Below are positions 9,884 to 54,158 of a stretch of DNA of 54,158 nt, one piece after another. The translations under genes were made by a program, and so were the position numbers. The stretch spans positions 1 through 54,158 of the forward strand of contig MWCD01000024.1 of NCBI GenBank assembly GCA_002069885.1, read 5' to 3'. The notes under the pieces are model-generated. The model searched no databases and was not told where the DNA came from. It worked only from the letters and a program-made list of their open reading frames with translations. Within the stretch, counting starts at the first letter, position 1, and every line of letters begins with the position of its first letter. Source of the DNA: a bacterium ADurb.Bin236 (GTDB taxonomy: Bacteria > UBP15 > UBA6099).

Positions 9884-12800
9884 TTAATTAGGTTGGCCCA
9901 TCGCTTCGCCCACGCACTGGCCGGCAGAGGGCGTCCAACCGCAGGTCGTCCACTGCGTGCAACTAGATTCATTGTAATACATCTGACATTCGCTGCCGAT
10001 CTCCTCGACACAGGAATTCCCGAATTCATCCCATGCGCAACTCATGTCCATGTCGCAAGGGTATGCGCTTACGTACGCGCACTGTTCGCCGTCGAAGTAG
10101 CAGCCTGTGGCCGCATTGCATGCCGACTCGTTGAATTCATAAGACAGACAATCTTCTGCGGTCGTGGGATATTGCGAGTCGCACCATGCCCCGCCCATGC
10201 TTCCGCAGCTCCCCATTTCCCATGAGCACCCCGGAACCATGCCACAATCAAAATCGTTCAGGTATGTTTCGCAAGCTGGGGGCGTCATGTCCAGCATGCA
10301 AAAGTAGCCATCCCACAAACAGGTCGGGTCGGCCTCGCATGCCATCTCGTCGTTAAACTTATTGCAGCCGGCGGTTCCGAACTCCGCGCAGTACTCTTCT
10401 CCAAAGTACCATTCGCAGTAAGTCGGGTGAACGTTGCAGGACATCGAGTCTTGGAACGCCCAACAATCCGTGGACGAAGTAATCTCGTAGCAAGCTCCTT
10501 CCATCCATGCGCACAACGGATTCATGTTGCATTCCGACATGTATTCGTGCGCGCCGCAGAGCGCCGTGCCTAGCTCGACGCATGAATACGTCGTGTAGTT
10601 CCATTCGCAACCCGTGGTCTCTCCGCATGTGTAGCCGTCGAACGAGAAGGAACAGTCCGCCTGCGTGTTTTCGCAGGTGTAATTATATCCGTCCCAGAAA
10701 CAACTGTTCATTTCACAATCTTCTTTATAACCCCATGCTCCGCAGAGCGCCGTCCCGTCTTCCACACATGTGTCTGTCGTGTAGTTCCATTCGCAGTTCG
10801 TGGTTTCGCCGCACGCGTATGTGTCGTAAACGCCATCGCAATAGACCGGGTAGTCCATGCAGTCGGTAGAATATCCGTCCCAGTAGCAACTATTGGTTTC
10901 GCATGTCGCCTTATCGTCCCACGCTCCGCAGAGCGCCGTCCCGTCTTCCACGCACATGTCCGACGTGTAGTTCCATTCGCAGTTCGTGGTTTCGCCGCAC
11001 GCGTATGTGTCGTAAACGCCATCGCAATAGACCGGGTAGTCCATGCAGTCGGTAGAATATCCGTCCCAGTAGCAACTATTGGTTTCGCATGTCGCCTTAT
11101 CGTCCCACGCTCCGCAGAGCGCCGTCCCGTCTTCCACGCACATGTCCGACGTGTAGTTCCATTCGCAGTTCGTGGTGTCGCCACAAGCGGCTGTGTCGTA
11201 AATGCCATCGCAATAGACCGGCGAGTTGAGACAATGATTCGCGCCTCCGTCCCAGTAGCAACTGTTGGATTCGCAGTCGCCCTTTGCCGCCCACGCTCCG
11301 CAAAGCGCTGTTCCTTCCGCCACGCATTCCCAATTCGTATAGTTCCATTCGCAGTTCGTGGTGTCTCCACAGGCGAGCGGTTCGGGTTGGCTATAGCAAT
11401 CGACAGGAGTGTCAAGACAGAGACTGCTTGCTCCGTTCCAATAACAACTGTTTGATTCGCAGACAGATTTGCCCGTCCATTCGTCGCAGCCCAAATTCAA
11501 GCAGGCCGCAGCGAGAGTTCCGGGATTCTCGCACACATCGACCGTCATCGGGTTGACATCGTCGCAGTCATAATCGGAAGCGCAGGCGATTGGAGTGTTC
11601 AGACACGCGGCGGTCAGCTCTCCTCCATTCATACATTCGTCATAAGTAAGCATGTCGATGTCGTCGCAGTCGGCGGCGGTCGCGCATTCAATCGGCGTGT
11701 TCACGCACGCGGAACCGACTTCTCCGGGGAACTCGCAGAGGTCATACGTTAAAGCGTAGCTGTCGTCGCAGTCCAAGTTATAAACACAGGCGATCGCGAT
11801 ATTCGCGCAAGCCGCGCTCAACAGGCCGGGGTCATTGCAGATATCCAACGTCAACGCGACGCTGTCGTCGCAGTCCAAGTCCGAATCGCATTCTATCGGC
11901 GTGTTCACACAGACCGCGTTCAACAGGCCGGGGTTTTCGCACTCGTCGAAGGTAAGCGCGTTTTCATCGTTACAGTCCGAAGCCGAAGCGCACTCAATCG
12001 GTGTGTTTGCGCATGCCGCGCTCAGCAGGCCGGGATTGGAACATTCATCAAATGTCAGCGCATTTGTGTCGTCACAGTCGGCGGCGATTGCGCATTCAAC
12101 CGGAGTGTTCACACAGTCCGCGCTAAGCTGTCCGGGGTTGGAACATGTGTCGTATGTAATCGCGACGCTGTCATTGCAATCCGCGTCCGCCGCGCAGGCG
12201 ATGGCTGTATTCACGCACGCCGCGCTCAGCAGGCCGGGGTCGGAACATTCATCAAATGTCAGCGCATTTGTGTCGTCGCAGTCGGCGGCGATTGCGCATT
12301 CAACCGGAGTGTTCACACAGTCCGCGCTAAGCTGTCCGGGGTTGGAACATGTGTCGTATGTAATCGCGACGCTGTCATTGCAATCCGCGTCCGCCGCGCA
12401 GGCGATGGCGGTATTCACGCACGCCGCGCTCAGCAGGCCGGGGGCGGAACATTCATCATAAGTCAGCGCGTTTGTGTCGTCGCAATCGGCGGCGGTCGCG
12501 CATTCTATCGGAGTGTTCACGCATTCCGAGCTAAGCTGTCCGGGGTTCGAGCATGTGTCGTATGTAATCGCGACGCTGTCATTGCAATCCGCGTCCGCCG
12601 CGCAAGCGATGGCGGTATTCACGCACGCCGCGCTCAGCAGGCCGGGGTCGGAACATTCATCATAAGTCAACGCGTTTGCGTCGTCGCAGTCTGCGGCGAA
12701 AGCGCATTCTATCGGAGTATTCACACAGGCCGCGTTCAATAATCCGGGATTATCGCACTGGTCGTATGTCAAAGGATATAGGTCGTTGCAATCCTCGTTG

Positions 12801-15367
12801 GAAGCGCATTGAACAAACGTGTTCACGCAATCGGCGCTCAGCAGGCCGGGATTGGAGCATTCATCAAAAGTCAGCGCGTTTGTGTCGTCGCAGTCGGCGG
12901 CAGTCGCGCATTCGACCGAAGTGTTCACACATGTCGCGTTAAGCTGTCCGGGGTTCGAGCATGTGTCGAATGTAATCGCGATGCTGTCATTGCAGTCCGC
13001 GTCCGCCGCGCAGGCGATGGCGGTATTTATGCACGCCGCGCTCAGCAGGCCGGGATTGGAGCATTCATCAAAAGTCAAAGCGTTTTCATCGTCGCAGTCG
13101 GCGGCAGTCGCGCATTCAACCGGAGTGTTCACACATGTCGCGCTCAACAAGCCGGGATTGGAACATGTGTCGAATGTAATCGCGATGCTGTCATTGCAAT
13201 CCGCGTCTGCCGCGCAAACGATGGCAGTATTCACACATGCCGCGTTCAGCAGTCCAGGGTTCGAGCATTCATCAAAAGTCAATGTATTTGCGTCGTCGCA
13301 GTCCGCTTTCGAAGCGCATTCAACCGTTGTGTTCACACAAGCAGCGTTTAGCAATCCGGGATTGGAACACGTGTCGAATGTGAGCGCGTTGTTGTCATTG
13401 CAGTTGGATGCCGCCGCGCAAGCGATGGCAGTGTTCACGCAAGCAGCCGCGCATGTGCCGGGCGCTGAGCAAACGTCGAAAGTCAACGGATTGCTGTCGT
13501 TGCAAGCGGCATTCTGAGAACAAGCGACGTTGCAAGGGGTATTCACGCAGACCGCGCTAAGCGTTCCGGGATTGGCGCACGTGTCGATGGTGAGCGGATT
13601 GCGGTCGTCGCAGTCAGAGGGGGATGAGCAAGCTATTGGGGTGAGAACAATGGAGGAGCGAGAAACCTTGTTCTCAATGGAGGCTTCGACTACGAACGGA
13701 TTGGCCGGGCCGCTCGTCAGGGTCATGACCGCTTGAGCGTAATAAGCGCCCGGAACCGTTCCGGGGGTATATTCCGCTCTTGCTGCCGGGCTGTTGATAA
13801 GCGTTAGGACCCTGTTGCCGAGGGACGCGCCGGCGCCGTCTTTGAATGTTACCATCAACGCTCCGGAAAGAGGAGTCGACGCGGTCACAAGCGCCACCGC
13901 CTGAACGGATGTCGCATTATTCTGCCATATCCCGCTGGGAATCAGGCTCAATTCTATATTTTCGATCACCACGCCCAATCGCGTCGGGTTCAACGTCGCG
14001 CCAGAGTTGACAACCAGTCTGGTCGTCTGGCTGAACTGGTCTGAAGCTGTGAACTCAATGGACTTGGAGCAATCTGCCAGATAGTAATTATCAAGGGAGA
14101 AAGAGCCGTCCGCGCCGATGGTTGCGCGCCCGGCGCTCGCAATGGGAACTCCATTGACATATACGGTAACGCCCGGATTCGTCATGCCTGAAATCGCGAC
14201 GTTTGGGCACTGCACGAAGCCTTCGGCGGGTTGCGACACAGTCAGGGCCGGCGGCCCGACGACTTCAATTTCAGCCTTGGCTTCGGCAGAGCAAGCCCCG
14301 TCCGGGCTGGAGCAAACCACTTCCAGCGTCTTGTCTCCGGCGTCGCCAAAAGAATATTCAGAAGTGAACGCGCCGTTTGCTCCCGCCGTCGCCGTCAGTC
14401 CGCCCACTGAGCAACTCGCTCCGGGGAGTGTCGTTCCGGACACCGTTATCGAGCCGCCGGAGAGCGGAAAAACGCCGCCGTCCACAGGCTTGATCAACTC
14501 GACGAAACACGTTGCCGCCCTTCCCGCCTCTGTTTCTTCTTCTTTCTCTTCCGTTTCAGGTTCGGGTTTCGGCTGGGCGGCGGTCTCTGCGGCAACGGCG
14601 CAAACGCCTTCCGCGCAGACCTTTCCGCAACATTCGCCGTCAGTTTCGCACGCGGCGCTCGTCGCTTTGCAGCCTCCGCCGCTCATCGACTCGCTCTCGC
14701 CCACGCACTGGCCGTCAACGCAATGGTGAGACATGCAGTCTTCATCCACTTCGCACGCGTTCATTTCCTCTTCTGTCACCGGAACCGGGGGAGCTGGCGG
14801 CTGATTAGGCTCTACAACGACCTGCGTTCCTCCGACCGCCATTACCGATTGGCCCTGCGACGTCACTTCCACCGCGCCTGTCCTTGTTGTTACGCTTGTG
14901 GTGTTCTCAGGAGTGTTTTCCATGTCGAACTCGGTTCCGCGCACGCCTGCCACCGCAGTCGGCGTGCTGATGGAGAACTCCGAACTCGGACTGTGCAGCT
15001 TCTCGGCCTTCGCTTTTATCTTGCCTGTCTGCAAGTCGAGGCTGGACGTCACCGTCTTCGTCCTCGGATCGACATCGATATCCTTGATGGTAAAGTTGGT
15101 GAACGGGTTGATTTTCAGCGTGTTCGAGGCGCTCCACTTGATCACCGCCGACGACTTGGCCCCCGTCGCTATCCGGGTCCCGCTCGGCAGGGCCATGTTG
15201 ACCGTCCCCTGCGTTGTCGTTCCGTCCGGCAGCGTCACCCGCACATCGCCTGTCACGCTCGACAGCGACGCCGTCACCGGTATCGCCCTCAGTTCAGCGG
15301 AATACACCGCCGCAATCACAATAAGCAAAGCTGCGACCGGCGCAAATTTAAGGATTCTTTTTAACAT
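9884..15367 (-). CDS. Giant secreted FecR-domain protein with Cys-rich tandem repeats
   Basis: An 1827-residue exported protein. A signal peptide (about 1-28) is followed by a FecR-like domain (about 30-190; SVTGDVRV, TPTAVAGVRGTEF) and Cys pairs of the kind 'DEDCMSHHCVDGQCVG'. An acidic/Pro linker and two or three Ig-like segments (about 290-590) follow. Then come 21 units of 34 residues, each with four Cys and a DCDDxN-type acidic loop, resembling the Dictyostelium CTDC repeat. About eight Cys/Trp-rich units of about 62 residues (CGAW, CYWDG, CEWNY) end the protein. It is probably disulphide-stapled and calcium-binding, on the cell surface. ATG at 15367 has AGGGGGCG before it. FecR here may bind peptidoglycan or sense envelope state; function is unknown. 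Confidence 0.9.
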   Translation of the reverse strand: MLKRILKFAPVAALLIVIAAVYSAELRAIPVTASLSSVTGDVRVTLPDGTTTQGTVNMALPSGTRIATGAKSSAVIKWSASNTLKINPFTNFTIKDIDVDPRTKTVTSSLDLQTGKIKAKAEKLHSPSSEFSISTPTAVAGVRGTEFDMENTPENTTSVTTRTGAVEVTSQGQSVMAVGGTQVVVEPNQPPAPPVPVTEEEMNACEVDEDCMSHHCVDGQCVGESESMSGGGCKATSAACETDGECCGKVCAEGVCAVAAETAAQPKPEPETEEKEEETEAGRAATCFVELIKPVDGGVFPLSGGSITVSGTTLPGASCSVGGLTATAGANGAFTSEYSFGDAGDKTLEVVCSSPDGACSAEAKAEIEVVGPPALTVSQPAEGFVQCPNVAISGMTNPGVTVYVNGVPIASAGRATIGADGSFSLDNYYLADCSKSIEFTASDQFSQTTRLVVNSGATLNPTRLGVVIENIELSLIPSGIWQNNATSVQAVALVTASTPLSGALMVTFKDGAGASLGNRVLTLINSPAARAEYTPGTVPGAYYAQAVMTLTSGPANPFVVEASIENKVSRSSIVLTPIACSSPSDCDDRNPLTIDTCANPGTLSAVCVNTPCNVACSQNAACNDSNPLTFDVCSAPGTCAAACVNTAIACAAASNCNDNNALTFDTCSNPGLLNAACVNTTVECASKADCDDANTLTFDECSNPGLLNAACVNTAIVCAADADCNDSIAITFDTCSNPGLLSATCVNTPVECATAADCDDENALTFDECSNPGLLSAACINTAIACAADADCNDSIAITFDTCSNPGQLNATCVNTSVECATAADCDDTNALTFDECSNPGLLSADCVNTFVQCASNEDCNDLYPLTYDQCDNPGLLNAACVNTPIECAFAADCDDANALTYDECSDPGLLSAACVNTAIACAADADCNDSVAITYDTCSNPGQLSSECVNTPIECATAADCDDTNALTYDECSAPGLLSAACVNTAIACAADADCNDSVAITYDTCSNPGQLSADCVNTPVECAIAADCDDTNALTFDECSDPGLLSAACVNTAIACAADADCNDSVAITYDTCSNPGQLSADCVNTPVECAIAADCDDTNALTFDECSNPGLLSAACANTPIECASASDCNDENALTFDECENPGLLNAVCVNTPIECDSDLDCDDSVALTLDICNDPGLLSAACANIAIACVYNLDCDDSYALTYDLCEFPGEVGSACVNTPIECATAADCDDIDMLTYDECMNGGELTAACLNTPIACASDYDCDDVNPMTVDVCENPGTLAAACLNLGCDEWTGKSVCESNSCYWNGASSLCLDTPVDCYSQPEPLACGDTTNCEWNYTNWECVAEGTALCGAWAAKGDCESNSCYWDGGANHCLNSPVYCDGIYDTAACGDTTNCEWNYTSDMCVEDGTALCGAWDDKATCETNSCYWDGYSTDCMDYPVYCDGVYDTYACGETTNCEWNYTSDMCVEDGTALCGAWDDKATCETNSCYWDGYSTDCMDYPVYCDGVYDTYACGETTNCEWNYTTDTCVEDGTALCGAWGYKEDCEMNSCFWDGYNYTCENTQADCSFSFDGYTCGETTGCEWNYTTYSCVELGTALCGAHEYMSECNMNPLCAWMEGACYEITSSTDCWAFQDSMSCNVHPTYCEWYFGEEYCAEFGTAGCNKFNDEMACEADPTCLWDGYFCMLDMTPPACETYLNDFDCGMVPGCSWEMGSCGSMGGAWCDSQYPTTAEDCLSYEFNESACNAATGCYFDGEQCAYVSAYPCDMDMSCAWDEFGNSCVEEIGSECQMYYNESSCTQWTTCGWTPSAGQCVGEAMGQPN
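9887..11488 (-). repeat. Tandem repeat, ~186-bp units (62-residue Cys/Trp-rich)
   Basis: About eight units encode the C-terminus of the FecR protein. The most recent duplication is visible in DNA: sequence from about 10793 recurs 186 bp later with almost no change. Units become more divergent and irregular toward the C-terminus (toward 9887). Confidence 0.85.
11489..13636 (-). repeat. Tandem repeat, 21 units of 102 bp (one of 108 bp)
   Basis: The span is exactly 2148 bp: 20 units of 34 codons and one of 36. Units alternate between a 'CAADADCNDS' type and a 'CATAADCDDT' type, so the higher-order period is 204 bp. The 204-bp period is nearly exact between about 12076 and 12480, indicating recent expansion by dimers. 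Confidence 0.9.
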
Positions 15368-43520: not shown

Positions 43521-44348
43521 ATGTCGCGCCCGACGGACTATCATCTGCATTCGAACACGACGGAAGACTCGGTGGCGACCGTCGAGGAGCTTGCGCGGGC
43601 GGCCGCCGCGCGCGGATTCGCCGAGATAGCCGTCACCGACCATTTTATCCTCGGCTACGACAACTATCGTGTCACCGTTGAGCAACTCGAAGCGCACCGC
43701 GCGCTTGCGAAAGAACTCGGCGGCAAGCTCGGCATTAAGATACTCCTCGGCGCTGAAGTGGACTACTTTGAGGACAGATTGCCGGAGATTCGCGCGTTTC
43801 TGGACTCGTTTGATTTCGACATAGTGATAGGGGCGGCGCACTTCGTGGACGGACGCGGAATAGCGGCGGAGCCGGGCGCTAAGGCGCTTGTGCGGGACAT
43901 CGGCAGGACGGAGGCGTTCAGGCGCTCGCTGCGGGCTGTCGAGCGCGCGGCGCGCTCCGGCATGTTCGACGTGATGGCCCATCTAGACGTGATACGAAAA
44001 TTCTCCGAGACGCCGGAAGACAGGGAGCCTTTCGAGAACTACGCTGAGGAAGCTGGGCGCGTTGCGGACGCGCTCGCCGAATCAGGCGTCGGGTTCGAGG
44101 TCAACTGCCGGGGCTTTTCTCATTCCACAGGCGGACAGTATCCCGGCGGCGAGTTCCTGTCGCTGCTGAAATCGCGGGGCGTCGGGCCTGTGACAGTCGG
44201 CTCGGACGCGCACACGGCGCGGGATGCCGGAGCGGACATCGACAGAGGCATAGACGCGCTGCGCGCTGCCGGGTTTGACAGCCTAGCGCGTTTCGAGCGC
44301 CGCCGCGCGACGCTTGCTCCGCTGGAAGAATTCGAATTTAAGCGCTGA
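43521..44348 (+). CDS. PHP-domain phosphatase (histidinol-phosphatase-like)
   Basis: 275 residues from ATG 43521; the frame is open upstream but that part overlaps the 70-residue gene. Metal motifs of the PHP fold are DYHLHSN, VTDHF, GAEVDY, GAAHF, MAHLDVI and GSDAHT. The order matches HisK-type histidinol-phosphate phosphatases. No other his genes are nearby, so a general phosphoesterase is possible. Confidence 0.88.
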   Translation: MSRPTDYHLHSNTTEDSVATVEELARAAAARGFAEIAVTDHFILGYDNYRVTVEQLEAHRALAKELGGKLGIKILLGAEVDYFEDRLPEIRAFLDSFDFDIVIGAAHFVDGRGIAAEPGAKALVRDIGRTEAFRRSLRAVERAARSGMFDVMAHLDVIRKFSETPEDREPFENYAEEAGRVADALAESGVGFEVNCRGFSHSTGGQYPGGEFLSLLKSRGVGPVTVGSDAHTARDAGADIDRGIDALRAAGFDSLARFERRRATLAPLEEFEFKR

Positions 44349-44398
44349 CGCTCGCACGCCGCGCCCTGCAAAGGTCGGCAGCGCGACAAGGACACATT

Positions 44399-45070
44399 TT
44401 GACTGATGAAACTAGAACCACAATTGAAGTTCTGTTCGGCAAGAAGTGGGAGGCGCGGCTGCTGTCGCACCTCGACGTCATGCGAGCGCTTTCCCGCGCG
44501 CTGCGCCGCTCTGGACTTCCAATCTATTTCACCGAAGGCTTCAATCCGAAACCCAAAGTGTCGTACCTGACACAGCCTTTGGCATTAGGGCACACATCGG
44601 AATGCGAGAGGTTCCGTTTCATGCTCGAAGAGAAAAAGAGCGTGGAAGAAACGCTCCGCGCGCTCGCCGCTAAAATGCCTCCGGGACTAGAGCCTTCCGC
44701 CGCGCGAATCGCGCTAGAAGGCGAAAAGCCGGCTGTCGCTAAGGGCATGGCATACATCTTTTTTCTCAGGAAGGGAGCGCGCGGGAACGCCCCGCAACCT
44801 CCGTTCTCGATGCCTGAAGAATTCGGCTGGATGTCGCCCCGCGAAGCGACACCATCAGAAATCGCCGCCGCGCGGCTGTTCGATTCGCGGGAGACGACCG
44901 CCCCGCGCGGCCCGGTCGAGGATTTTATAAGCGGAAGTTTTGAATCAGCTTTTGTTATCAAAACCGCCGCAGGCTCAGAATTCCGGCGGCCGGACAAGAT
45001 AATGATTCCCGCGCCTCCGGTCGTAAAAGAGGACTTCTTTTTCCATCGGCTCAGGGAAACGGCGGAATAA
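44399..45070 (+). CDS. DUF2344 / TIGR03936 family protein (radical-SAM partner)
   Basis: 223 residues. The family signature RLLSHLDVMRALSRALRRSG then LPIYFTEGFNPKPKVSY is clear. In many bacteria this domain is paired with a B12/radical SAM protein, often next to the RNase G gene and ribosomal genes; none of these is here, so the gene is separated from its usual partner. The start is TTG at 44399 with AAGGA 7 bp before. Confidence 0.88.
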   Translation: MTDETRTTIEVLFGKKWEARLLSHLDVMRALSRALRRSGLPIYFTEGFNPKPKVSYLTQPLALGHTSECERFRFMLEEKKSVEETLRALAAKMPPGLEPSAARIALEGEKPAVAKGMAYIFFLRKGARGNAPQPPFSMPEEFGWMSPREATPSEIAAARLFDSRETTAPRGPVEDFISGSFESAFVIKTAAGSEFRRPDKIMIPAPPVVKEDFFFHRLRETAE

Positions 45071-45184
45071 GCGAAAGTTTTTGCGTGCGGCGGGAACAAA
45101 CAGCCGCATCTCATTTGATAATATAAGAAGAGACAACGGCGCGGAGCGGTGTCAGGCCCGCCCCGCGACCACGGGGAGGCCTTT

Positions 45185-45697
45185 ATGGCGCGCTACAGGT
45201 CCGAACGCAAATTCAACTATCCGGTGGACGATGCCGTGAGAGTTTTCTTGGACGGCGGCGAAGACGCGTATGACATGCACGAACTGGAGAACGTCACCGC
45301 ATGGAAAGTGGTGAAAGAAGAGGACGACGGAGTGCGCAGGGTCGGAACAAAAGAGTGGTGCGCCCACGGCCAGATACCCCGCGCCGCCCAGCACATTATC
45401 AGCCCCAAAATGCTCACTTGGTTCGAGCATTCGGTGTGGGACAGACAGAAGAAAATCTATTCTTTCGAGATAGAGCCGAGATATCTGCGGAAACAGATTT
45501 CCTGCAAAGGGCAGACCGCATACATGGCCGACGGCCCGGACAAGATGAAACGGATATTTGAAATAACGCTGAAAATCGACATACCGTTGTTCGGCCCTAT
45601 TCTGGAAGCCGCCATAATGGAGCTTCTGAAAAAGAACGAAGAGCAGGACTTTAAGTGCTGCGCGCAAAGCTTGGAAAAAAAGTTTGGCAAGAAGTAG
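45185..45697 (+). CDS. SRPBCC-fold protein (DUF2505-like), third paralogue
   Basis: 170 residues from ATG 45185, preceded by GGGGAGGCC. FNYPVDDAVRVF, ISPKMLTWFEHSVWD and the C-terminal helix with KKNEEQDFKCC align by pattern with the protein at 36903. Two adjacent Cys near the end are a difference. Transcribed toward the convergent serine hydrolase gene with only 18 bp between ends. Confidence 0.75.
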   Translation: MARYRSERKFNYPVDDAVRVFLDGGEDAYDMHELENVTAWKVVKEEDDGVRRVGTKEWCAHGQIPRAAQHIISPKMLTWFEHSVWDRQKKIYSFEIEPRYLRKQISCKGQTAYMADGPDKMKRIFEITLKIDIPLFGPILEAAIMELLKKNEEQDFKCCAQSLEKKFGKK

Positions 45698-45715
45698 CGC
45701 TCGCGTACGTCGCGC

Positions 45716-46876
45716 TTATTGCCCGCCGGACGGTTCCCTGATTTCCAGTTTCTTTATCTGTACGCCGTCGGACCATTCGCCGACGCGCGTCACTTTGTCT
45801 GAATCGCCGAGCGCGCCGTCGCAGTTCTTTCCATAGAAAGCGCAATCTGTCAGCGAATCGAACAGCCGCCAGAGGGCGAAGTCGTGAACGTTCGCCGCGT
45901 AAACGTCGCGCTCTTCCGGCTCCTGTTCGCCGTCGCGCGCCATGCGTTCCAGTCTGTCTCGGATGATACCCGCCACCGGTTCGGCGGCTAGCCGCCTCTC
46001 GGGGATATCGAAACTCTGGTCTGTGGCTATCGGAAGCATGTGATCCGCCGCAAGCGCGGGGTCTCCGTGCCTGTCGCTGTGAAACACGATGTAGTTCTTA
46101 TGCTCGGCGGGCAGAGATGTCGCCGCGCGGTATATTTCCGCTGCCGTCCGCTCCGCGACGATGCCGTCATCAGCTCCGACGACCACTGCGAAAAGAGTTC
46201 CCGGATGTATGTCCGCGTAATCCGCCATGATGGATTCCAGCGGTTTGTGGTGAACCATTTTTGCGATGTGCGCGTATTTGGGGTCTCCCGGTTCGACAGG
46301 CATGGCGGCGCGCACCCTCGGCATGGCCAGCTTGCTCCAATTGGCCGTCAGGTTGGAAGCCAGAACGCCGCCGAAAGAATGACCGACCGCCGCGAAACGC
46401 TCCAAATCGGGTTTTACGCGACCGGGCTTTTGAAGTTCCACCAGCGCGGCCGCCACAGCGTCCATCGCCGCCTTGTGCATCACGGGCGGCATCACGTTCA
46501 CGTTCTCCTGATACTTCGGGAATATCACAATCGAGCCGCGGCGCGCGAGATGGCTTATCCAGCCGCCGTACATCTTGGGGTGCATCGCGCTCCAGCCATG
46601 GAAAAAGGCTATCACTGGCGCTGACTCCGGAGCCGGGTCGGCAGGCTCGAATATCCAGAACATGTCGTTGCCCGAGCCGTGTTGAGACATTTTGATATCC
46701 GCGTGGGGATAGACCGCGCCGCCGGGGCCTGACGCGGGCTGCGATGGTTGCGCGGCGGACGTCTCTCCCTTGAGGTCCACCACTATCGCGCGGCACGCGC
46801 GCGGGGCCGCCGCGACGACCACCGCGCTAACCGCCAGCGCAGTCAATATCATCCTTGCTCTTTTCATCGTATTCAT
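45716..46876 (-). CDS. Secreted alpha/beta-hydrolase (dienelactone/acetylxylan-type)
   Basis: 386 residues from the ATG at 46876, which has AAGGAG 8 bp before it. A signal peptide (MKRARMILTAL... AxA near 30) directs export. The nucleophile Ser is in GHSFGG, with the acid likely in VVGADDG and the His in SDRHGD or AADH. An oxyanion region FFHGWSA is present. Substrate unknown. It follows the peptidase gene by 28 bp, so the pair may be an operon. Confidence 0.85.
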   Translation of the reverse strand: MNTMKRARMILTALAVSAVVVAAAPRACRAIVVDLKGETSAAQPSQPASGPGGAVYPHADIKMSQHGSGNDMFWIFEPADPAPESAPVIAFFHGWSAMHPKMYGGWISHLARRGSIVIFPKYQENVNVMPPVMHKAAMDAVAAALVELQKPGRVKPDLERFAAVGHSFGGVLASNLTANWSKLAMPRVRAAMPVEPGDPKYAHIAKMVHHKPLESIMADYADIHPGTLFAVVVGADDGIVAERTAAEIYRAATSLPAEHKNYIVFHSDRHGDPALAADHMLPIATDQSFDIPERRLAAEPVAGIIRDRLERMARDGEQEPEERDVYAANVHDFALWRLFDSLTDCAFYGKNCDGALGDSDKVTRVGEWSDGVQIKKLEIREPSGGQ

Positions 46877-46904
46877 TTCGCGACTCCTTCCGCCGGGGCG
46901 CTTC

Positions 46905-47945
46905 TCAGTTGTCGCGCCTGCCCGGTCTCCACGGACGGTGTCCATAATCGTCTATGTCCCATTCCTCGTCCAGTTCGTCCCAGTCGTCCTCCGGGTCGTA
47001 GCCGGAGCCTCCGCCGGGATAGACGAGCTTGAATTTTCTCTTGCGCCTGAATCCCAGAAAGACTTTCATTCCCGCGACTATAACCAGCAACGCCATGCCC
47101 GTCCAGATGTAAGTGTCGAACGCCGCGAAGAACTGCATCGCCCACACAATGGGAGCCGGTTTGGCGGCTTGGGCCAGCCAGTCGGCGGACAGTCCTTCAA
47201 GTCCGTCGCCGTAAACCCGCTTCAGGGCGACATCCACCGAATCGCCGTCCGCAAGTCCGTCGAGCAGATGCCTTATGCCCGCCTCGCCTTTGCGCTTGAT
47301 CAGCCATGAGACAAAATCGTGGCTCTGAGCGTACGCCAACTCAGCAATGAACTTCCCCGAAGGGAAGCCGTAGTGCAGGTCGTTGAAATCGAGGGCCGCG
47401 CCCTTGCGCGCCGCGTTATAGAGATCCGCCCGACGCTTGTGCCACGATTCCGGGGATTCCCATGCGTCCGACAGATGCACGGCCAGCCCCTCGTTGAGCC
47501 AGCGCGGAAGCGCCCCCGGCCTTGCGCGGAACTTGTGCCCGAGCGCGGCGTGGAACAACTCGTGCTCCAGCACGCTTGAAAAATATCCCGCGTCGCCCGC
47601 GAAACTTTCCGCCCTCATCACAACCGCGCGCCTGTCGTGAACGTACACCGCTATCGCCCAAGAGGGAGCCATTCCGCCCGTGTATTCCTCGAACTCCGCG
47701 TCGTCCGCCGCGATATACACCACAAAAGGCCCGGTCGGCTCGTGTCCGATGAATTTCGCCGCCTTCGCAAGAGCCCTCTCGCCGTCCCGCCTGACCGCTT
47801 CCTCAAGCCCGCGCGAGCCACCGGAAGATTTAACCTCAATCCTAAACGCGCGGGACTCCGACGCGCCCGCGAACCCCGCTGCCGCCAAAAGCGCAAACAG
47901 AGCCGCCGCCAACCCCGCCGCATATCTCATTCTAGTCATAATCAT
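46905..47945 (-). CDS. Secreted HExxH metallopeptidase (peptidase MA-like) with C-terminal helix
   Basis: 346 residues. A signal peptide (1-28) precedes a gluzincin domain with HELFHAALGH and the downstream Glu in WLNEGLAVHL, the expected third zinc ligand. A single membrane helix (about 275-300) and an acidic C-terminal tail (DPEDDWDELDEEWD) follow, so the protease domain faces the periplasm and the tail the cytosol. Role unknown; probably co-expressed with the hydrolase downstream. Confidence 0.87.
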   Translation of the reverse strand: MIMTRMRYAAGLAAALFALLAAAGFAGASESRAFRIEVKSSGGSRGLEEAVRRDGERALAKAAKFIGHEPTGPFVVYIAADDAEFEEYTGGMAPSWAIAVYVHDRRAVVMRAESFAGDAGYFSSVLEHELFHAALGHKFRARPGALPRWLNEGLAVHLSDAWESPESWHKRRADLYNAARKGAALDFNDLHYGFPSGKFIAELAYAQSHDFVSWLIKRKGEAGIRHLLDGLADGDSVDVALKRVYGDGLEGLSADWLAQAAKPAPIVWAMQFFAAFDTYIWTGMALLVIVAGMKVFLGFRRKRKFKLVYPGGGSGYDPEDDWDELDEEWDIDDYGHRPWRPGRRDN

Positions 47946-48060
47946 TAAGTATGATTATAAACCTATTCCCAGCCCGGAAACCCCGTCCGCCCAATTATGC
48001 GCAACAGCCGGAAAATAAGAAGATCAGCGGTGCTGTCGCTAATAAAGCGCCTCCGGCGGC

Positions 48061-48156
48061 CAAAGAGAAACTTTTGAAAAAGTTTCTCTTTGGAATCTCT
48101 TCAAAACGTTTCAATGGCCGTCGGGAAGAGACGAGAAAGCGCGTCTATTCCCGACG
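48061..48156 (+). repeat. Hairpin module copy 6 (intact; 'empty site' reference)
   Basis: CAAAGAGAAACTTTT (48061-48075) with its complement (48078-48092), then the third arm GAATCTCTTC (48093-48102). CGTCGGGAA (48119-48127) pairs with TTCCCGACG (48148-48156). Base for base this is the uninterrupted form of the module split by the 179-bp element at 9346-9625. Confidence 0.8.
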
Positions 48157-48204
48157 CCCTGTGTGAAATCATTTAGAAACAGATTCCAATGAGACATCCT
48201 ATCC

Positions 48205-48229
48205 GGGCGACCCAACGGGTCTCCCCTAC
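48205..48229 (+). repeat. Half copy of the GTAGGGGC-type element
   Basis: GGGCGACCC-AAC-GGGTCTCCC-CTAC, an imperfect hairpin ending like the right half of the 37638-37707 element. Confidence 0.5.
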
Positions 48230-48242
48230 GATTCTTTTCTCG

Positions 48243-48403
48243 TTAAAAATCATTTATGAACAGGATTCCTCTGAAAACCCTTTCCCAAGATCTTTTCACA
48301 AGATACGCGCCGAAGGCGGAAGCGAAGCCTCCGCCTTCGGCGCTAGCATGAAATGTTTTGAAAGGGATTTTAAGGGAAAACTTTTTCAAAAGTTTTCCCT
48401 TAA
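48243..48403 (-). repeat. Hairpin module copy 7 with GC-rich hairpin
   Basis: GCGCCGAAGGCGGA (48307-48320) pairs exactly with 48330-48343. The third arm GAAAGGGATT (48360-48369) and the stem TTAAGGGAAAACTTTT (48370-48385) with its complement (48388-48403) follow. It ends 5 bp before the carB stop, so it is probably the carB terminator. The rest of the 47946-48408 gap is repeats only. Confidence 0.75.
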
Positions 48404-48408
48404 TAATT

Positions 48409-51400
48409 TCACTTTTTTTTCGCGGCAGTCTTTTTTGCGGGCGCTTTATGGGCAGCGGACTTGCGGGCATTGGACGCAGCTAGGTTTTTTTTATGATATT
48501 CCTGAAGCGGGGCGACTGTGAAGCCGCGTTCCCGGAAAGCTTCCATGCCCTGAACGGTGGCCTGAGCGCCTGAGATGGTGGTGACAAGAGGGATGTCGCG
48601 GGCTATGGCGGCGCTTCTAATTTTCGCTTCGTCAACTTTAGTGTCTTTGCCCGCCGGGGTATTTATCAGCATGACGACTTCTTTGTTTTTGACGACGTCG
48701 AGGACATTCGGGCGGCCTTGGTCTAGTTTGTGAACTGAGCGCGCCTCTATGCCGTTGCGCCGCAGAGTGCTGGCCGTTCCTTCGGTGGCCACTATCTCGA
48801 ACCCCATGTCGATCAGTTTCCGGGCTATAGGGACAATGGCGCGTTTATCGCTGTTTTTGACGCTGACGAAGACGGCCCCTTTGTCCGGCAGTTTCTGTCC
48901 GGCGGCGATTTGCGATTTGAGGAACGCCATTCCGAAATCGCGGTCGATGCCCATGACTTCGCCTGTGGAAAGCATTTCCGGGCCGAGCGTGGCGTCAACG
49001 CCGGGGAACCGGGAGAACGGGAACACTGCTTCCTTCACGCTCATGTGTTCCGGGACGGAATCTTCGGCGACGCCCTGTTTTTCTAGCGATTCGCCGAGCA
49101 TCACGCGGGTGGCGACTTTCGCCCACGGGGTCCCGGTTGCTTTGGAAACAAACGGGACGGTGCGTGAAGCGCGCGGATTGACTTCGAGAACGTAGATGAC
49201 GTCGTTTTTGACGGCGAATTGGACATTCATAAGCCCGACGACGCCAAGCTCGCGGGCCATCGCGCGAGTGGCCCCTTTTATTTCCTCGACAATGGCTTCG
49301 TTGAGGGTGTACGGTGGCAGACAGCAGGCGCTGTCTCCGCTGTGGACTCCGGCCTGCTCGATGTGTTCCATGACGCCGCACACCAAGCACCTTTCGCCGT
49401 CCGCCACCGCGTCAACGTCGACCTCTATGGCGTCGTCCAAGAACCTGTCGAGCAGAACGGGTTTATCCGGGGAAGCGGATACGGCCTTTGCCATGTATTC
49501 CCGCAGGTCGGCTTCCTCATAGACGACGCGCATCGCGCGCCCGCCGAGGACGTATGACGGCCTGACGAGTAGCGGATAGCCTATCTGCCTCGCCTTGCGG
49601 ACGGCCTCTTCGACCGTGCCGGCGGTGTCGTTGTCCGGTTGCGTTAGGTTGAGTTTGTCGAGCGTTTCCTTGAACCGTTTTCTATCTTCCGCGCGGTCAA
49701 TGTTGTCCGGGGAAGTGCCGAGGATGGGAGCGCCCGCGCGCAGCAGCTTTGTGGCCAGATTCAAAGGAGTCTGTCCGCCTAGCTGCACTATGACGCCGTG
49801 CGGCTTCTCCCGGTCGATTATGTTCATGACATCCTCGAACGTGAGCGGCTCGAAATAGAGCCTGTCGGAGGTGTCGAAGTCGGTCGAAACTGTTTCTGGG
49901 TTGGAGTTGATGAGGATTGCGGTGTAGCCAGCCTCTTTGATAGCGTAAGCGGCGTGGACGCAGCAGTAGTCGAACTCAATGCCCTGACCGATGCGGTTGG
50001 GACCGCCGCCGAGGATGATGATTTTTTTGCCTCTGTCGCCTTTGGGAGCGGCGTCCGTCGATTCAAACGCGGCGTACCGGGCGCGCGCGGTTCCGCTCGC
50101 GTCCATTGCGCCGGCTCCGGCGGTGGTTCCCTGTTTTTTTCTCAGTCTCCGCAATTCGGTCTCCTCCGTTTCAAGCAGGCGCGCGATGTCCTCGTCGCCA
50201 AGCCCCGCCAGCTTCGCCTGCTTCAGCAGGGAGGCCGGCGCCGTCTCGATTCTATACTTTCCCGCGCGCGCCGAGATTTCAGCTATCTCGGCGAACTGCG
50301 AGACGAACCATCCGTCGATCAATGTCAGGCCGCGGATTTCTTCCACACGCATCCCGGCGGCCAACGCGTCGAATATGTGAAACAGCCTCGCCGGGTTCGG
50401 GCGGGACAACAGGCCCCGCAATGTTTCCCTGCCAGCTTCGGTTGAAGCGTCCGGCGGTTTGGGACGGCTCGTTTCGAGCGCGCGCATGGCTTTCAGGAGC
50501 GACTCTTTGAAAGTCCTCCCCGTCCCCATCGCTCCGCCGGTGGATTTCATGGCGGTGTCCAACGTGTCGTCGGCGCCGGGGAATTTTTCAAAATCGAATC
50601 TCGGCAGCCGGGTGACGCAATAGTCCGGTTCAGGCTCTCGGAACGCGTTCCCGCTCCCGAACTCCGGCTCGGTTATTTCGTCCAGAGTCAGGCCGCAGAC
50701 GAGTTTTGCCGCGACCCTCGCGACCGGATACCCCGTCGCCCTAGCCGCGAACGCCGACGATCTCGTGTAGCGCGGCACAGCGTAGATGAGCTTGATGTCG
50801 CCCGAAGCCGGTTCGAGAGCGAACCTGACATTTACGACGCCAACCGCGTCGAGCGCTCGCGCTACCGCTTCCGCGCTCTTCTTCAACCGGCGCGTAGCGC
50901 CCAGAGTCAGCGCTTGAGCCGGGATGACCGCCGCGCTGTCTCCCGAATGTATCCCCGCCGGGTCTATGTTCTCTATCATTGCGACCGTCGCGGCGTTTCC
51001 GTTGGCGTCCCGCATCAGGACTATCTCTATTTCTTTCCATCCGCGAAGAAGCTTCTCGACGAGAATGGTTCCGGCGGCGCTGGATTTGAGCGCGGATGCC
51101 GCCTGCCCTTCGAGGTCTTCCATGTTGTAAGCGGTCGAGTTGCCGGCGCCGCCTTCCGACATCAGAGGACGAAGAGCGGCCGGGAACCCGATTTCAAGCG
51201 CGGCGGCTTCCGCCTCTTCGATGGAAGAAACAACCGCGCCCGGCGGAACTTCCACCCCGGCTATTTTCATTAGCTTAAGGAACTTGCGCCTGTCCACGGA
51301 CGCAGCGCGGGATGTTTCCGACACGCCCATCAGAGAGGCGCCCATTTTCTTCATCGCCTTGAGAGTCGCAGGAGCGGTCGCGGCATTCACCGCCGCTCCG

Positions 51401-51669
51401 CCGCCGAACACAGGCAGCAGGGCAGTTGCCTTCTCTCTTTCTATAGCCGCCGCCAAGTTTTCCGGGGAGACAGCTTCAAAATACACCGGGCCGGGAGCGT
51501 CGATGTCGGTGGACGCCGCCGTCGGATTTGCTGAGATGAGAGCGACCTCGAAACTGAGGTCGCGAAGAGCCTTCATCGCTTCAGCGCACGCGTGATCGAA
51601 CTCCGCTCCGGCGCTCGATGCCGACGACACCGCCCCCAAGAGAACTATTTTTTTCTTTTTAGCAGTCAT
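48409..51669 (-). CDS. carB: CarB-like carbamoyl-phosphate synthase large chain with degenerate first half
   Basis: 1086 residues, with two ATP-grasp halves and an MGS-like regulatory domain (about 930-1050), plus an extra Lys/Ala-rich tail. The second half (about 548-930) is intact: LGGGPNRIGQGIEFDY, RPSYVLGGRAM, and the metal ligands Gln817, Glu829, Asn831 in NVQFA and LEVNPR. The first half is altered. The GPIVIGQ loop is SSASSAG, the Gly loop is SEGGAGNS, and the metal ligands equivalent to E. coli Gln285, Glu299 and Asn301 are Arg282, Tyr296 and Val298. Bicarbonate activation in that half should therefore fail. Start overlaps the carA stop by 4 bp. The call as a functional CarB is uncertain. 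Confidence 0.88.
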   Translation of the reverse strand: MTAKKKKIVLLGAVSSASSAGAEFDHACAEAMKALRDLSFEVALISANPTAASTDIDAPGPVYFEAVSPENLAAAIEREKATALLPVFGGGAAVNAATAPATLKAMKKMGASLMGVSETSRAASVDRRKFLKLMKIAGVEVPPGAVVSSIEEAEAAALEIGFPAALRPLMSEGGAGNSTAYNMEDLEGQAASALKSSAAGTILVEKLLRGWKEIEIVLMRDANGNAATVAMIENIDPAGIHSGDSAAVIPAQALTLGATRRLKKSAEAVARALDAVGVVNVRFALEPASGDIKLIYAVPRYTRSSAFAARATGYPVARVAAKLVCGLTLDEITEPEFGSGNAFREPEPDYCVTRLPRFDFEKFPGADDTLDTAMKSTGGAMGTGRTFKESLLKAMRALETSRPKPPDASTEAGRETLRGLLSRPNPARLFHIFDALAAGMRVEEIRGLTLIDGWFVSQFAEIAEISARAGKYRIETAPASLLKQAKLAGLGDEDIARLLETEETELRRLRKKQGTTAGAGAMDASGTARARYAAFESTDAAPKGDRGKKIIILGGGPNRIGQGIEFDYCCVHAAYAIKEAGYTAILINSNPETVSTDFDTSDRLYFEPLTFEDVMNIIDREKPHGVIVQLGGQTPLNLATKLLRAGAPILGTSPDNIDRAEDRKRFKETLDKLNLTQPDNDTAGTVEEAVRKARQIGYPLLVRPSYVLGGRAMRVVYEEADLREYMAKAVSASPDKPVLLDRFLDDAIEVDVDAVADGERCLVCGVMEHIEQAGVHSGDSACCLPPYTLNEAIVEEIKGATRAMARELGVVGLMNVQFAVKNDVIYVLEVNPRASRTVPFVSKATGTPWAKVATRVMLGESLEKQGVAEDSVPEHMSVKEAVFPFSRFPGVDATLGPEMLSTGEVMGIDRDFGMAFLKSQIAAGQKLPDKGAVFVSVKNSDKRAIVPIARKLIDMGFEIVATEGTASTLRRNGIEARSVHKLDQGRPNVLDVVKNKEVVMLINTPAGKDTKVDEAKIRSAAIARDIPLVTTISGAQATVQGMEAFRERGFTVAPLQEYHKKNLAASNARKSAAHKAPAKKTAAKKK

Positions 51670-52727
51670 AGCGGCAACCCGCCTGTCAGTTCCTGAAGCG
51701 TTTCCAGCCCGTCCGGCTCGAAAAACGCGCCGGCGGCCATCTTCCGACTGTGAACGAAGCCCTCGACCGATCCGTCGATTGTGTTGACATAAAGCGTCTC
51801 GCCGCCGCGCCGCCTGAGGTCTTCAGCCCTAAGCGCAACGGAGTGGTTCTGCTCGGTTATACGGAGCGCGCCCGTCGCCGCGTTCGCCACCGGGATGTTC
51901 ACGCCGTGATGGCCGCTCTTCATGCCGGACAAAGGGACGCCAAGCGCGGACGCGACAAGCGCCGCCCCAAGCCCTATCCCCGCCACCGGAACCCGGCCCA
52001 GCAGCGACTTTATCGTGGCCACCGTCCCCGGCAACGAGTCCGCCGGATACGCCCCGTTCGAGACCAGCGCCGCGTCCGGGCGGATCGACAGTATCTCTTC
52101 GGCGGACATCCGAGGCCCGAACGCCCGCCAGAATATGTTGTGCCTTTTCAGCAACCTATAGAACGAGGCCCCAGCGCCGATGTCCAGAACCACCGCGGTG
52201 GCCCCGCCTCCTGCCGGCCTCCATGACGCCAGAAGCGCCTCGCCGCTCACGCGGTACTTGTCCGGGTTCGCGCTCGTCTGCGTTTTTAAAAGCGCCAGCC
52301 TCGCAAGGTGCGACTTCAGCGAGGACTCCTCGGTGGTCAGCAGCGCCCACTGCTCGCCGCGCGAACGGATGTGAGCGGCGATCTCCCGCGTCGGCGCTCC
52401 TTCGAGGCCTAGCAACTGCCTCGACTCGCAGAAACGCCCGAACGACATCGGCCCTCCGCCGTCCGAAACCGACTTCGACAGTTCCCGGCAGACCAAGCCC
52501 TCGGCGCACACCCTGTCCGACTCGTTCCATGCCTCGTCCGCTCCGCACGCGCCGACCGTCGGCCTCTCGAAAACCAGTATCCTGCCGAGGTAGGACGGCG
52601 TAGTGGCGGCTTCCTGAAAACCCGCCCCGCCCGCGAACGCGACGGCCACTCCGGCGCGGTCTCCGTGAGACCCGAACGCCTCGGCCTCGAACGCCGTTCC
52701 GTCTTCGAATATCAGCGAACCTTTCAT
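51666..52727 (-). CDS. carA: CarA-like glutaminase subunit lacking the catalytic triad
   Basis: 353 residues from the ATG at 52727, with GGGAG upstream; an upstream ATG (52814) adds 29 residues without homology. The N-terminal CarA domain and the class I amidotransferase fold are recognisable (SNGAYPADSLPG, KSGHHGVNIPV, ITEQNH, VEGFVHS). The catalytic GICLGHQ is GIGLGAA, so Cys is Gly252 and the glutamine-binding Gln is Ala256. The His and Glu of GHPEA are Glu337 and Asp339. It cannot hydrolyse glutamine by the known mechanism. It probably has a structural role for the CarB-like partner, or a new role. Confidence 0.88.
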   Translation of the reverse strand: MKGSLIFEDGTAFEAEAFGSHGDRAGVAVAFAGGAGFQEAATTPSYLGRILVFERPTVGACGADEAWNESDRVCAEGLVCRELSKSVSDGGGPMSFGRFCESRQLLGLEGAPTREIAAHIRSRGEQWALLTTEESSLKSHLARLALLKTQTSANPDKYRVSGEALLASWRPAGGGATAVVLDIGAGASFYRLLKRHNIFWRAFGPRMSAEEILSIRPDAALVSNGAYPADSLPGTVATIKSLLGRVPVAGIGLGAALVASALGVPLSGMKSGHHGVNIPVANAATGALRITEQNHSVALRAEDLRRRGGETLYVNTIDGSVEGFVHSRKMAAGAFFEPDGLETLQELTGGLPL

Positions 52728-52867
52728 ATCTTGCGCGCCTTGCTCCCAGCGGGTCGCCCGTTCATTCCCCGCGCGCCGCCTCAGTCTGTTTCCATCATCC
52801 AACAAATTGTACACATTTTAACGTTTTCATCCATACAAAACCCGATATTCGTCAAGCGCGCTATTTA

Positions 52868-52896
52868 TTGATATCTCAATGCGCGTATAATATAAT
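52868..52896 (+). promoter_or_regulatory. Promoter of the Gfo/Idh/MocA oxidoreductase gene
   Basis: TTGATA (52868-52873), 17 bp, TATAAT (52891-52896), 38 bp before the ATG. One of the best sigma70-like matches in the window. The carA gene on the other strand has a possible TACAAT (52811-52806) with no clear -35. Confidence 0.65.
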
Positions 52897-52934
52897 CGGT
52901 TGCGCTTAAGCTTCTCGCGAAAGGATATGAGCAA

Positions 52935-54071
52935 ATGCCGAAAAAAACAGTCAAGTTTCTGGTTCTAGGCTGCGGGCGGCAGGCATGGCTCGCGTTTTTT
53001 CCGTGGATAAAGGCGAACCCGAACGCGCGGCTCGAAGCGGTGGCCGACATCAATGAGGATCAAGCGCGGCGCGCGGCAAAAGAGTTCGGCGCGCGCAAAG
53101 TGTTCACCGACATCGAAAAGGCCATCGAACAGAGCGAGGCAGACGCGGCGATTGTCGTCACCCCCCCATGGGCGCACGCGGAACCGGTGGCGCTCGCGGC
53201 GCGGCGCGGCATGAGCGTGCTGTGCGAAAAGCCGATGGCCGTCAATTCCGCCGAATGCCGACGCATGATCGAGGAGTGCGAGAAAAACAACGTCCTCCTT
53301 CGCATCGGATTCTCTCTCCGCTTCGACCCCGGTTATGAAAAAGTCAAGACAATGATAAAAACCGGCGACATAGGCCGGGTTTTCCAGTTGAGAGCCGAAT
53401 ACGACCTATGGGCTCCCGACCTGACTAAATCGCCGATGCGCGAGATAATACAAGTCGGAGGACGTCTCAGGCTGTCGCACTCGCCGGATATGGGGGCATG
53501 GCGCGTGAACGACGCCCGCGCGGGCGGCGGCGTGTTCTTTGACCACGGCATTCATTACGTGGACCTATTCCGTTTCTTCATGGACGAGGATTGCGACGTT
53601 CTGGGCGGAACCGCGCATAAAGTCGTTCCGACGCGCTCTTTCGAGGACCACGCGTCCTGCATGCTGAGGTTCGAGTCCGGGGCCGCCGCCCACATTCAGA
53701 CCAGCCTAAGCCGCTGGAGCGCGCGCGACGAAATCGAACAAGGCATGATTAACGGCTCCGGGGGGTGTATCCGCTTTAAATTCGATCCGAGTTGGTTTCT
53801 GCGAGGCTACCCGCATCTTTATCACACTCACGCGCGCGTCTGGAAGTACGGCGTTCCTTCTCTCATCTTGGGCCGCTGGCTGCCCGAACATGTCCCACAC
53901 GGCCCCGCACACGTGATGTTCAAACGGCAAATCGACGACTTCGTCTCCCGCGTCAACGGCTCCTTCGAGCCGCATCCTGTTTTCGGGGAAATCTGGGGAG
54001 CGACCGGACACGACGGCCTTCGCGCCATCGAGATCGCCGAGCAGGTCGTTTCATCCCGGATTCGTCGATAG
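52935..54071 (+). CDS. Gfo/Idh/MocA family oxidoreductase
   Basis: 378 residues. An N-terminal Rossmann domain (LVLGCGRQAW) with an acidic strand-2 end (VADINE) favours NAD(H). The family motif CEKPMA holds the catalytic-region Lys, and GGGVFFDHGIHYVDL carries the conserved Asp and His. It acts on a sugar or cyclitol. AAAGGA lies 10 bp before the ATG. The last four codons (RIRR) and the stop lie inside the 179-bp element copy C, so the native C-terminus was probably replaced by the insertion. Confidence 0.9.
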   Translation: MPKKTVKFLVLGCGRQAWLAFFPWIKANPNARLEAVADINEDQARRAAKEFGARKVFTDIEKAIEQSEADAAIVVTPPWAHAEPVALAARRGMSVLCEKPMAVNSAECRRMIEECEKNNVLLRIGFSLRFDPGYEKVKTMIKTGDIGRVFQLRAEYDLWAPDLTKSPMREIIQVGGRLRLSHSPDMGAWRVNDARAGGGVFFDHGIHYVDLFRFFMDEDCDVLGGTAHKVVPTRSFEDHASCMLRFESGAAAHIQTSLSRWSARDEIEQGMINGSGGCIRFKFDPSWFLRGYPHLYHTHARVWKYGVPSLILGRWLPEHVPHGPAHVMFKRQIDDFVSRVNGSFEPHPVFGEIWGATGHDGLRAIEIAEQVVSSRIRR

Positions 54072-54158
54072 AGCCGACGAACCGGGGCGATTTTCATAGC
54101 GGCGAACTGCTTCGTTGCCGCCACATTTTTTTGTTCACGAACCCTATGTTCTATTCAC
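54055..54158 (-). mobile_element. 179-bp non-coding inverted-end element, copy C (cut by window end)
   Basis: Reverse orientation: CCCGGATTC starts at 54055 and matches the right end of copies A and B. The interior follows to the window edge, including the GTTC(A/G)TGAAC palindrome region. The outer flank reads ATGAA on the element's strand, against TTGAA at copies A and B. It overlaps the 3' end of the oxidoreductase gene. Confidence 0.75.

What the first reader, a model, noticed from the sequence alone, without database searches (positions are those of the whole stretch)
48409..52727. carA-carB pair with dead glutaminase and dead first ATP-grasp half
Seen: CarA has Gly, Glu and Asp where the Cys-His-Glu triad should be, and Ala for the glutamine-binding Gln. 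CarB keeps all metal ligands in the second half (Gln817, Glu829, Asn831) but has Arg282, Tyr296 and Val298 in the first, plus a lost GPIVIGQ loop. Known: CPS I in animals lost only the Cys and uses ammonia; isolated CPS halves can, as homodimers, run the whole reaction from ammonia. Inference: this enzyme may make carbamoyl phosphate from free ammonia or carbamate using only the second half, or both chains may serve a new ATP-grasp reaction. Both genes remain long, open and overlapping by 4 bp, which argues against simple decay. I know of no described CPS with both sites lost.
Basis: partly seen in the sequence, partly recalled or inferred. Interest (0 to 1): 0.85.

Follow-up and report, generated by a model that had tools for sequence, protein, structure and literature searches.

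The report
Half-dead enzyme operon with surviving partner
In a little-known bacterial phylum, one copy of the genes for an essential enzyme has lost two of its three active sites, while a second copy elsewhere in the genome keeps exactly those two and lacks the third, so the working enzyme is probably put together from two complementary broken operons.

Summary
Confirmed: window carA* (353 aa) lacks the Cys-His-Glu triad, and carB* (1086 aa) has a dead first ATP-grasp half (Gln/Glu/Asn ligands now Arg282/Tyr296/Val298; carbamate-tunnel loop replaced) but a perfect second half. This is not a dying gene. In four species of candidate phylum UBP15 both genes stay open and under purifying selection (dN/dS 0.09-0.17 for CarA*, 0.09-0.12 for the dead half, 0.006-0.02 for the live half).

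Another operon holds an intact CarA plus a stand-alone CarB first half that stops at the inter-half linker, runs into purF, and has every N-half catalytic residue. Thus the two operons are complementary, and a related family (G006) carries the same second half as a free protein beside the same CarA-CarB1. Best explanation: a split carbamoyl-phosphate synthetase reassembled from two operons. CarA-CarB1 makes carbamate, the CarB* C-half phosphorylates it, and CarA* plus the dead half persist as scaffold or regulator. Split CPS is known (Aquifex); a split partner still carrying its dead glutaminase and dead first half seems new. Uncertain: a third, orphan complete CarB exists, and the pairing is inferred.

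The parts
51666..52727 (-). carA*: catalytically dead glutaminase subunit, 353 aa
   Evidence: TIGR01368 204.8 bits, below its 307.35 cut-off; C269G, Q273A, H353E, E355D; model pLDDT 88, TM 0.88 to E. coli CarA 1a9x_B
51972..51974 (-). codon of Gly252, in place of the nucleophile Cys269
   Evidence: alignment to E. coli CarA
48409..51669 (-). carB*: large subunit, 1086 aa, overlapping carA* by 4 bp
   Evidence: TIGR01369 1117.7 bits, cut-off 1027; model pLDDT 83, TM 0.93 to 1bxr_A
50047..51669 (-). dead first half plus oligomerisation domain (residues 1-541)
   Evidence: retains 21/51, 64/89 and 10/16 invariant columns; pooled dN/dS 0.177, 0.084, 0.052 by domain
51604..51636 (-). replaced carbamate-tunnel loop (GPIVIGQ -> VSSASSA region, residues 12-22)
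   Evidence: residues 16-19 have pLDDT < 50 in the model
50776..50826 (-). lost first-half metal ligands Arg282, Tyr296, Val298
   Evidence: also lost, by partly different substitutions, in G004 (R, S, N; R303T)
48898..50037 (-). intact second (carbamate-phosphorylating) half, residues 545-924
   Evidence: 52/53 and 77/77 invariant columns kept; pooled dN/dS 0.000 and 0.026
49177..49221 (-). intact second-half metal ligands Gln817, Glu829, Asn831
   Evidence: Glu829 is Lys in one of four species, G002
48490..48897 (-). MGS-like allosteric domain, residues 925-1060
   Evidence: Pfam MGS 5.6e-22; 19/19 invariant columns kept

Best explanation
The window operon is one of two complementary remnants of a duplicated or twice-acquired carAB. 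The other remnant (G000 contig C51) makes an intact glutaminase CarA and a free, intact first half, CarB1. Glutamine-derived ammonia is turned into carbamate on CarA-CarB1 and handed to the intact second half of CarB*, which phosphorylates it to carbamoyl phosphate under control of its MGS domain. CarA* and the dead first half do no chemistry. They are kept as a folded structural or regulatory platform, mainly through the CarA N-domain and the CarB oligomerisation domain. Shown: which residues are dead or alive, the complementarity, purifying selection, compatible folds, and a free second-half orthologue in a sister family. Inferred: the physical complex, the direction of carbamate transfer and the scaffold role.
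For: (1) Complementarity. CarB1 keeps 49/51, 89/89 and 18/18 invariant N-half columns and has no C-half; CarB* keeps 21/51, 64/89, 10/16 in N but 52/53, 77/77, 19/19 in C. C51 CarA has C/H/E intact. (2) CarB1 truly ends there: its stop overlaps the start of purF, and G004 has the same CarB1-purF order. (3) In G006 the orthologous second half (72% identity; clade 100/100 with CarB*) is a free ~600-aa protein, and CarA-CarB1 is present. (4) In the sampled genomes every free first half found comes with another C-half source: free CarB2 (G006, G010, G059, G085), CarB* (G000-G004), or a full CarB not beside an intact CarA (G073, G044) (G098 is incomplete). (5) Selection: C-half dN/dS 0.006-0.021; dead half 0.09-0.12; CarA* 0.09-0.17. 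By domain: CarA* N-domain 0.063 vs glutaminase domain 0.208; oligomerisation domain 0.052 vs preATP-N 0.177. (6) The C-half side of the tunnel interface (R571, G575, E577 equivalents) is conserved though its own N-half loop is destroyed, as expected if another N-half docks. [quoted passage not shown]
Against: A third locus (C1) encodes a complete orphan CarB with both sites intact; it could use the C51 CarA, leaving CarB1 and CarB* for something else. The dead first half is still attached and predicted to fold where CarB1 would have to sit, so docking needs a rearrangement or a higher-order complex. In G002 the second-half ligand Glu829 is Lys by a single base change, possibly an error. C-half and N-half trees do not resolve a shared sister group. 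No expression or interaction data exist.
Confidence: 0.6

Rival explanations
1. CarA*-CarB* is a self-sufficient, glutamine-independent enzyme: its live half makes carbamoyl phosphate from ammonia and bicarbonate as a homodimer, or from free carbamate, while CarA + orphan CarB supply the glutamine-dependent activity.
For: Isolated Aquifex CPS.A and CPS.B each catalyse both partial reactions (PMC6022934). Other bacteria found here (G099-G102) have only a glutaminase-dead CarA, so ammonia-type bacterial CPS is plausible. An orphan complete CarB exists.
Against: Leaves the conserved CarA-CarB1 operon without a C-half partner. G006 keeps the same C-half as a free subunit together with CarB1. The dead half and CarA* would be dead weight, yet are under purifying selection.
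Confidence: 0.17
2. CarA*-CarB* has taken on a new ATP-grasp reaction on another substrate, with the remodelled first half as a new binding site.
For: First half very divergent (branch 6-7 changes per site) yet constrained. A CPS-like ATP-grasp protein of M. smithii has been reassigned to another pathway (PMC11915815).
Against: C-half and MGS keep all but one of 149 invariant CPS columns, so the carbamate site is unchanged. The window neighbours (hydrolase, peptidase, GFO/IDH oxidoreductase) suggest no pathway.
Confidence: 0.08
3. A decaying paralogue caught before loss, with CPS activity carried by CarA + orphan CarB.
For: Two active sites lost; G006 lacks CarA* and the dead half; G002 carries E829K.
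Against: dN/dS far below 1 in all parts, no frameshift in four species, and loss of function already shared by two genera; C-half nearly invariant.
Confidence: 0.1

Closest known systems
Split CPS of Aquifex aeolicus (CPS.A, CPS.B, GLN from separate genes; Ahuja et al. 2001, cited in PMC6022934)
   Same: Glutaminase, first half and second half come from separate genes and would have to assemble in trans; G006 looks like exactly this arrangement.
   Different: In the window lineage the second half is still fused to a dead first half and co-encoded with a dead CarA, both under selection; a separate orphan CarB also exists.
E. coli CarAB (glutamine-dependent CPS)
   Same: Same operon order, domain order and folds (TM 0.88 and 0.93); second half and MGS domain intact.
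   Different: Glutaminase and carboxy-phosphate sites both lost; tunnel loop of the first half replaced.
Animal CPS I (ammonia-dependent)
   Same: Glutaminase domain kept without its catalytic Cys.
   Different: CPS I keeps both ATP sites (established knowledge); here the first is dead. The closer bacterial parallel is the CarA-dead/CarB-intact clade in G046, G073, G099-G102.

Membership tests
CarB, CPS large subunit (TIGR01369) | Score above the curated cut-off over the full length | tested here: met
   1117.7 bits vs 1027, residues 4-1040
CarB, CPS large subunit (TIGR01369) | First-half metal ligands Gln285/Glu299/Asn301 | tested here: not met
   R282/Y296/V298
CarB, CPS large subunit (TIGR01369) | Second-half metal ligands Gln829/Glu841/Asn843 | tested here: met
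   Q817/E829/N831; E829K in G002 only
CarA, glutamine-hydrolysing CPS small subunit (TIGR01368) | Score above the curated cut-off | tested here: not met
   204.8 vs 307.35; PRK12838 197.4 vs 221
CarA, glutamine-hydrolysing CPS small subunit (TIGR01368) | Cys-His-Glu catalytic triad | tested here: not met
   C269G, H353E, E355D
Split CPS (Aquifex type) | Separate intact first-half subunit encoded in the genome with an intact CarA | tested here: met
   C51 CarA + CarB1, all catalytic residues present, no C-half
Split CPS (Aquifex type) | Second half as a separate polypeptide | tested here: not met
   Fused to a dead first half in G000-G004; met in G006
Split CPS (Aquifex type) | Subunits assemble into a glutamine-dependent complex | not testable with these tools
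   Needs biochemistry
Ammonia-dependent CPS (CPS I type) | Dead glutaminase with both ATP sites intact | tested here: not met
   First ATP site lost

The most novel reading that the evidence does not exclude
A carbamoyl-phosphate synthetase reconstituted in trans from two paralogous operons that degenerated in exactly complementary ways, in which the dead glutaminase and dead first ATP-grasp half survive as a selected pseudo-enzyme platform; UBP15 species show the intermediate (dead parts kept) and the end state (dead parts shed) of CPS splitting.
Probability: 0.55. Interest if true: 0.75.

Novelty: new variant of a known kind. Interest (0 to 1): 0.6.

Why it matters
CPS is the textbook channelling enzyme: three active sites linked by a 96-angstrom tunnel that protects unstable intermediates. 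If the enzyme is rebuilt from two degenerate operons, carbamate must pass between chains from different loci past a resident dead half. That gives a natural test of whether channelling needs covalent linkage, a clean prokaryotic example of complementary loss after duplication, and a plausible route by which split CPSs such as that of Aquifex arose.

Tried and rejected
Simple pseudogene: rejected by dN/dS, open frames and sharing across two genera. Assembly artefact: rejected, since the operon recurs in four further MAGs and the carA*/GFO-IDH neighbourhood is kept in G001-G003. Viral origin: a viral-contig scan found no relative. Regulatory RNA: none at Rfam gathering thresholds in 44000-54158. 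Descent of CarB* from the CarA-dead/CarB-intact clade of G046/G073/G099: the C-half tree does not show it, but the AU test does not reject it (p = 0.198). One search was a mistyped ticket and a rejected form. Literature: no described CPS with this pattern found in the held library; most subscription papers are not in it.

Full report
The observation. The window's carB* (48409-51669, minus, 1086 aa) and carA* (51666-52727, minus, 353 aa) are real and overlap by 4 bp. Pfam finds the full CarB domain set and both CarA domains. CarB* passes the curated CPS cut-off while CarA* does not. The CarA triad reads G, E, D and Gln273 is Ala. Other first-half nucleotide-binding residues (R129, R169, GG175-176, E215, H243, R306) are still present, so the loss is specific to the metal/phosphate site and the tunnel loop.

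Who has it. A genome-contig scan with a five-member CarA* alignment found relatives above 36% only in MAGs that match candidate phylum UBP15 (UBA6099 and three others). One search placed the same loci in three same-genus genomes (93-97% identity) and one same-family genome (49%). The next best relatives are ordinary CarAs and CarA-dead paralogues at about 30-36%. The small held phylum has seven genomes. The dead residues are shared in the genus; G004 has lost the same sites by partly different substitutions. The phylum name is inferred from the record title of L064, which matches G003 in contig length and position.

Not decay. Nei-Gojobori estimates among the four same-genus species give dN/dS 0.09-0.17 for CarA*, 0.09-0.12 for the dead half, 0.006-0.021 for the live half and 0-0.024 for the MGS domain. 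For comparison C51 CarA is 0.034-0.062 and CarB1 0.033-0.045. By domain the constraint on the dead parts sits where contacts would be: CarA* N-domain 0.063 against 0.208 for its glutaminase domain; oligomerisation domain 0.052 against 0.177 for the first-half pre-ATP domain. Both chains are predicted to fold like E. coli CarA and CarB (pLDDT 88 and 83; TM 0.88 and 0.93). The homologues in the alignment favour that result, so it shows compatibility rather than proof.

The rest of the genome. One search found three more CarB-type stretches (two loci) and a second CarA. On C51 an intact CarA is followed by a CarB that ends at the linker between the halves, its stop codon overlapping the start of purF. 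All its first-half residues are intact and there is no second half. G004 has the same CarA-CarB1-purF order, and G073, outside the phylum, has CarA-CarB1 followed by genes that read as glmS and purF. On C1 a complete CarB with both sites intact stands beside ileS without a carA; it belongs to a separate, well-supported clade.

Complementarity. Over columns that are at least 90% invariant in 50 canonical CarBs, CarB1 keeps 49/51, 89/89 and 18/18 in the first half. CarB* keeps 21/51, 64/89 and 10/16 there, but 52/53, 77/77 and 19/19 in the second half. The first half of CarB* sits on a branch of 6-7 changes per site; its second half on one of about 0.3. In G006, a sister family, the orthologous second half is a free ~600-aa protein with no carA* or dead half in front, and CarA-CarB1 is present; the second halves group at 100/100 and the CarB1s at 100/97. 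G005, a third family, has an ordinary carAB. So the split pair was present in the common ancestor of the two families, and the dead parts were either shed in G006 or, for carA*, missed in its 78%-complete assembly.

Mechanism. The best account is a glutamine-dependent CPS working in trans: CarA-CarB1 makes carbamate, the live half of CarB* phosphorylates it, and CarA* plus the dead half remain as a scaffold or regulator. [quoted passage not shown] That the C-half tunnel loop is strictly conserved although its own first-half counterpart is destroyed fits docking of another first half, but it would also fit a homodimer. Weak points: the orphan CarB could be the real housekeeping enzyme; the dead half blocks the obvious docking site; one species has E829K. 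UBP15 genomes contain aspartate carbamoyltransferase above the curated cut-off in six of seven, and a second, weaker match, probably ornithine carbamoyltransferase, in six of seven, so carbamoyl phosphate is consumed.

An ammonia- or carbamate-only enzyme remains possible, since isolated Aquifex halves can run both partial reactions. It would leave CarB1 without a partner and the retained dead parts unexplained. A new ATP-grasp reaction is less likely still, because the second half and MGS domain keep all but one of the 149 invariant columns.

Novelty. Split CPS, Cys-less glutaminase and duplicated CPS operons are each known. A CPS second half still attached to a dead first half and a dead CarA, with the two missing activities encoded intact at another locus, was not found described in the papers searched. 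I file it as a new variant of a known kind.

Noticed in passing
L197, L198, L199, L200 (G099-G102); L171 (G073); L173 (G046): A clade of bacterial carAB operons with a glutaminase-dead CarA (C269S, H353Y) and a CarB intact at both ATP sites. In G099-G102 it is the only CarA found, which suggests a bacterial ammonia-dependent CPS.
   Followed up: partly
L089-L118, e.g. L089:7968-10825: Streptococcus parasanguinis group: a gene that reads as pyrB, followed by a dead CarA (Cys->Gly, His->Gln, Glu->Asp) and a lone, degenerate CarB first half of about 583 aa, open in ten genomes.
   Followed up: partly
L085, L102, L103, L110, L117, L120: Bhargavaea and Edaphobacillus CarA with Asn in place of the catalytic Cys and a changed triad.
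   Followed up: no
L036:6208-9408 (G000 C1) and loci L202, L203, L204, L205, L172: A distinct clade of complete CarB genes fetched without an adjacent carA, present in UBP15 and several unrelated genomes as a second CarB.
   Followed up: partly
L169:1362-4592 (G044): A full CarB whose first half falls in the orphan CarB clade while its second half groups with ordinary CarBs; it looks like a hybrid, in a genome that also has a free CarB1.
   Followed up: no
L039:535-3792 (G002): CarB* second-half metal ligand Glu829 is Lys by a single base change (GAA->AAA); real change or MAG error unknown.
   Followed up: no
window 9884-15367: An 1827-aa ORF on the minus strand with only an N-terminal FecR domain recognised.
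   Followed up: no
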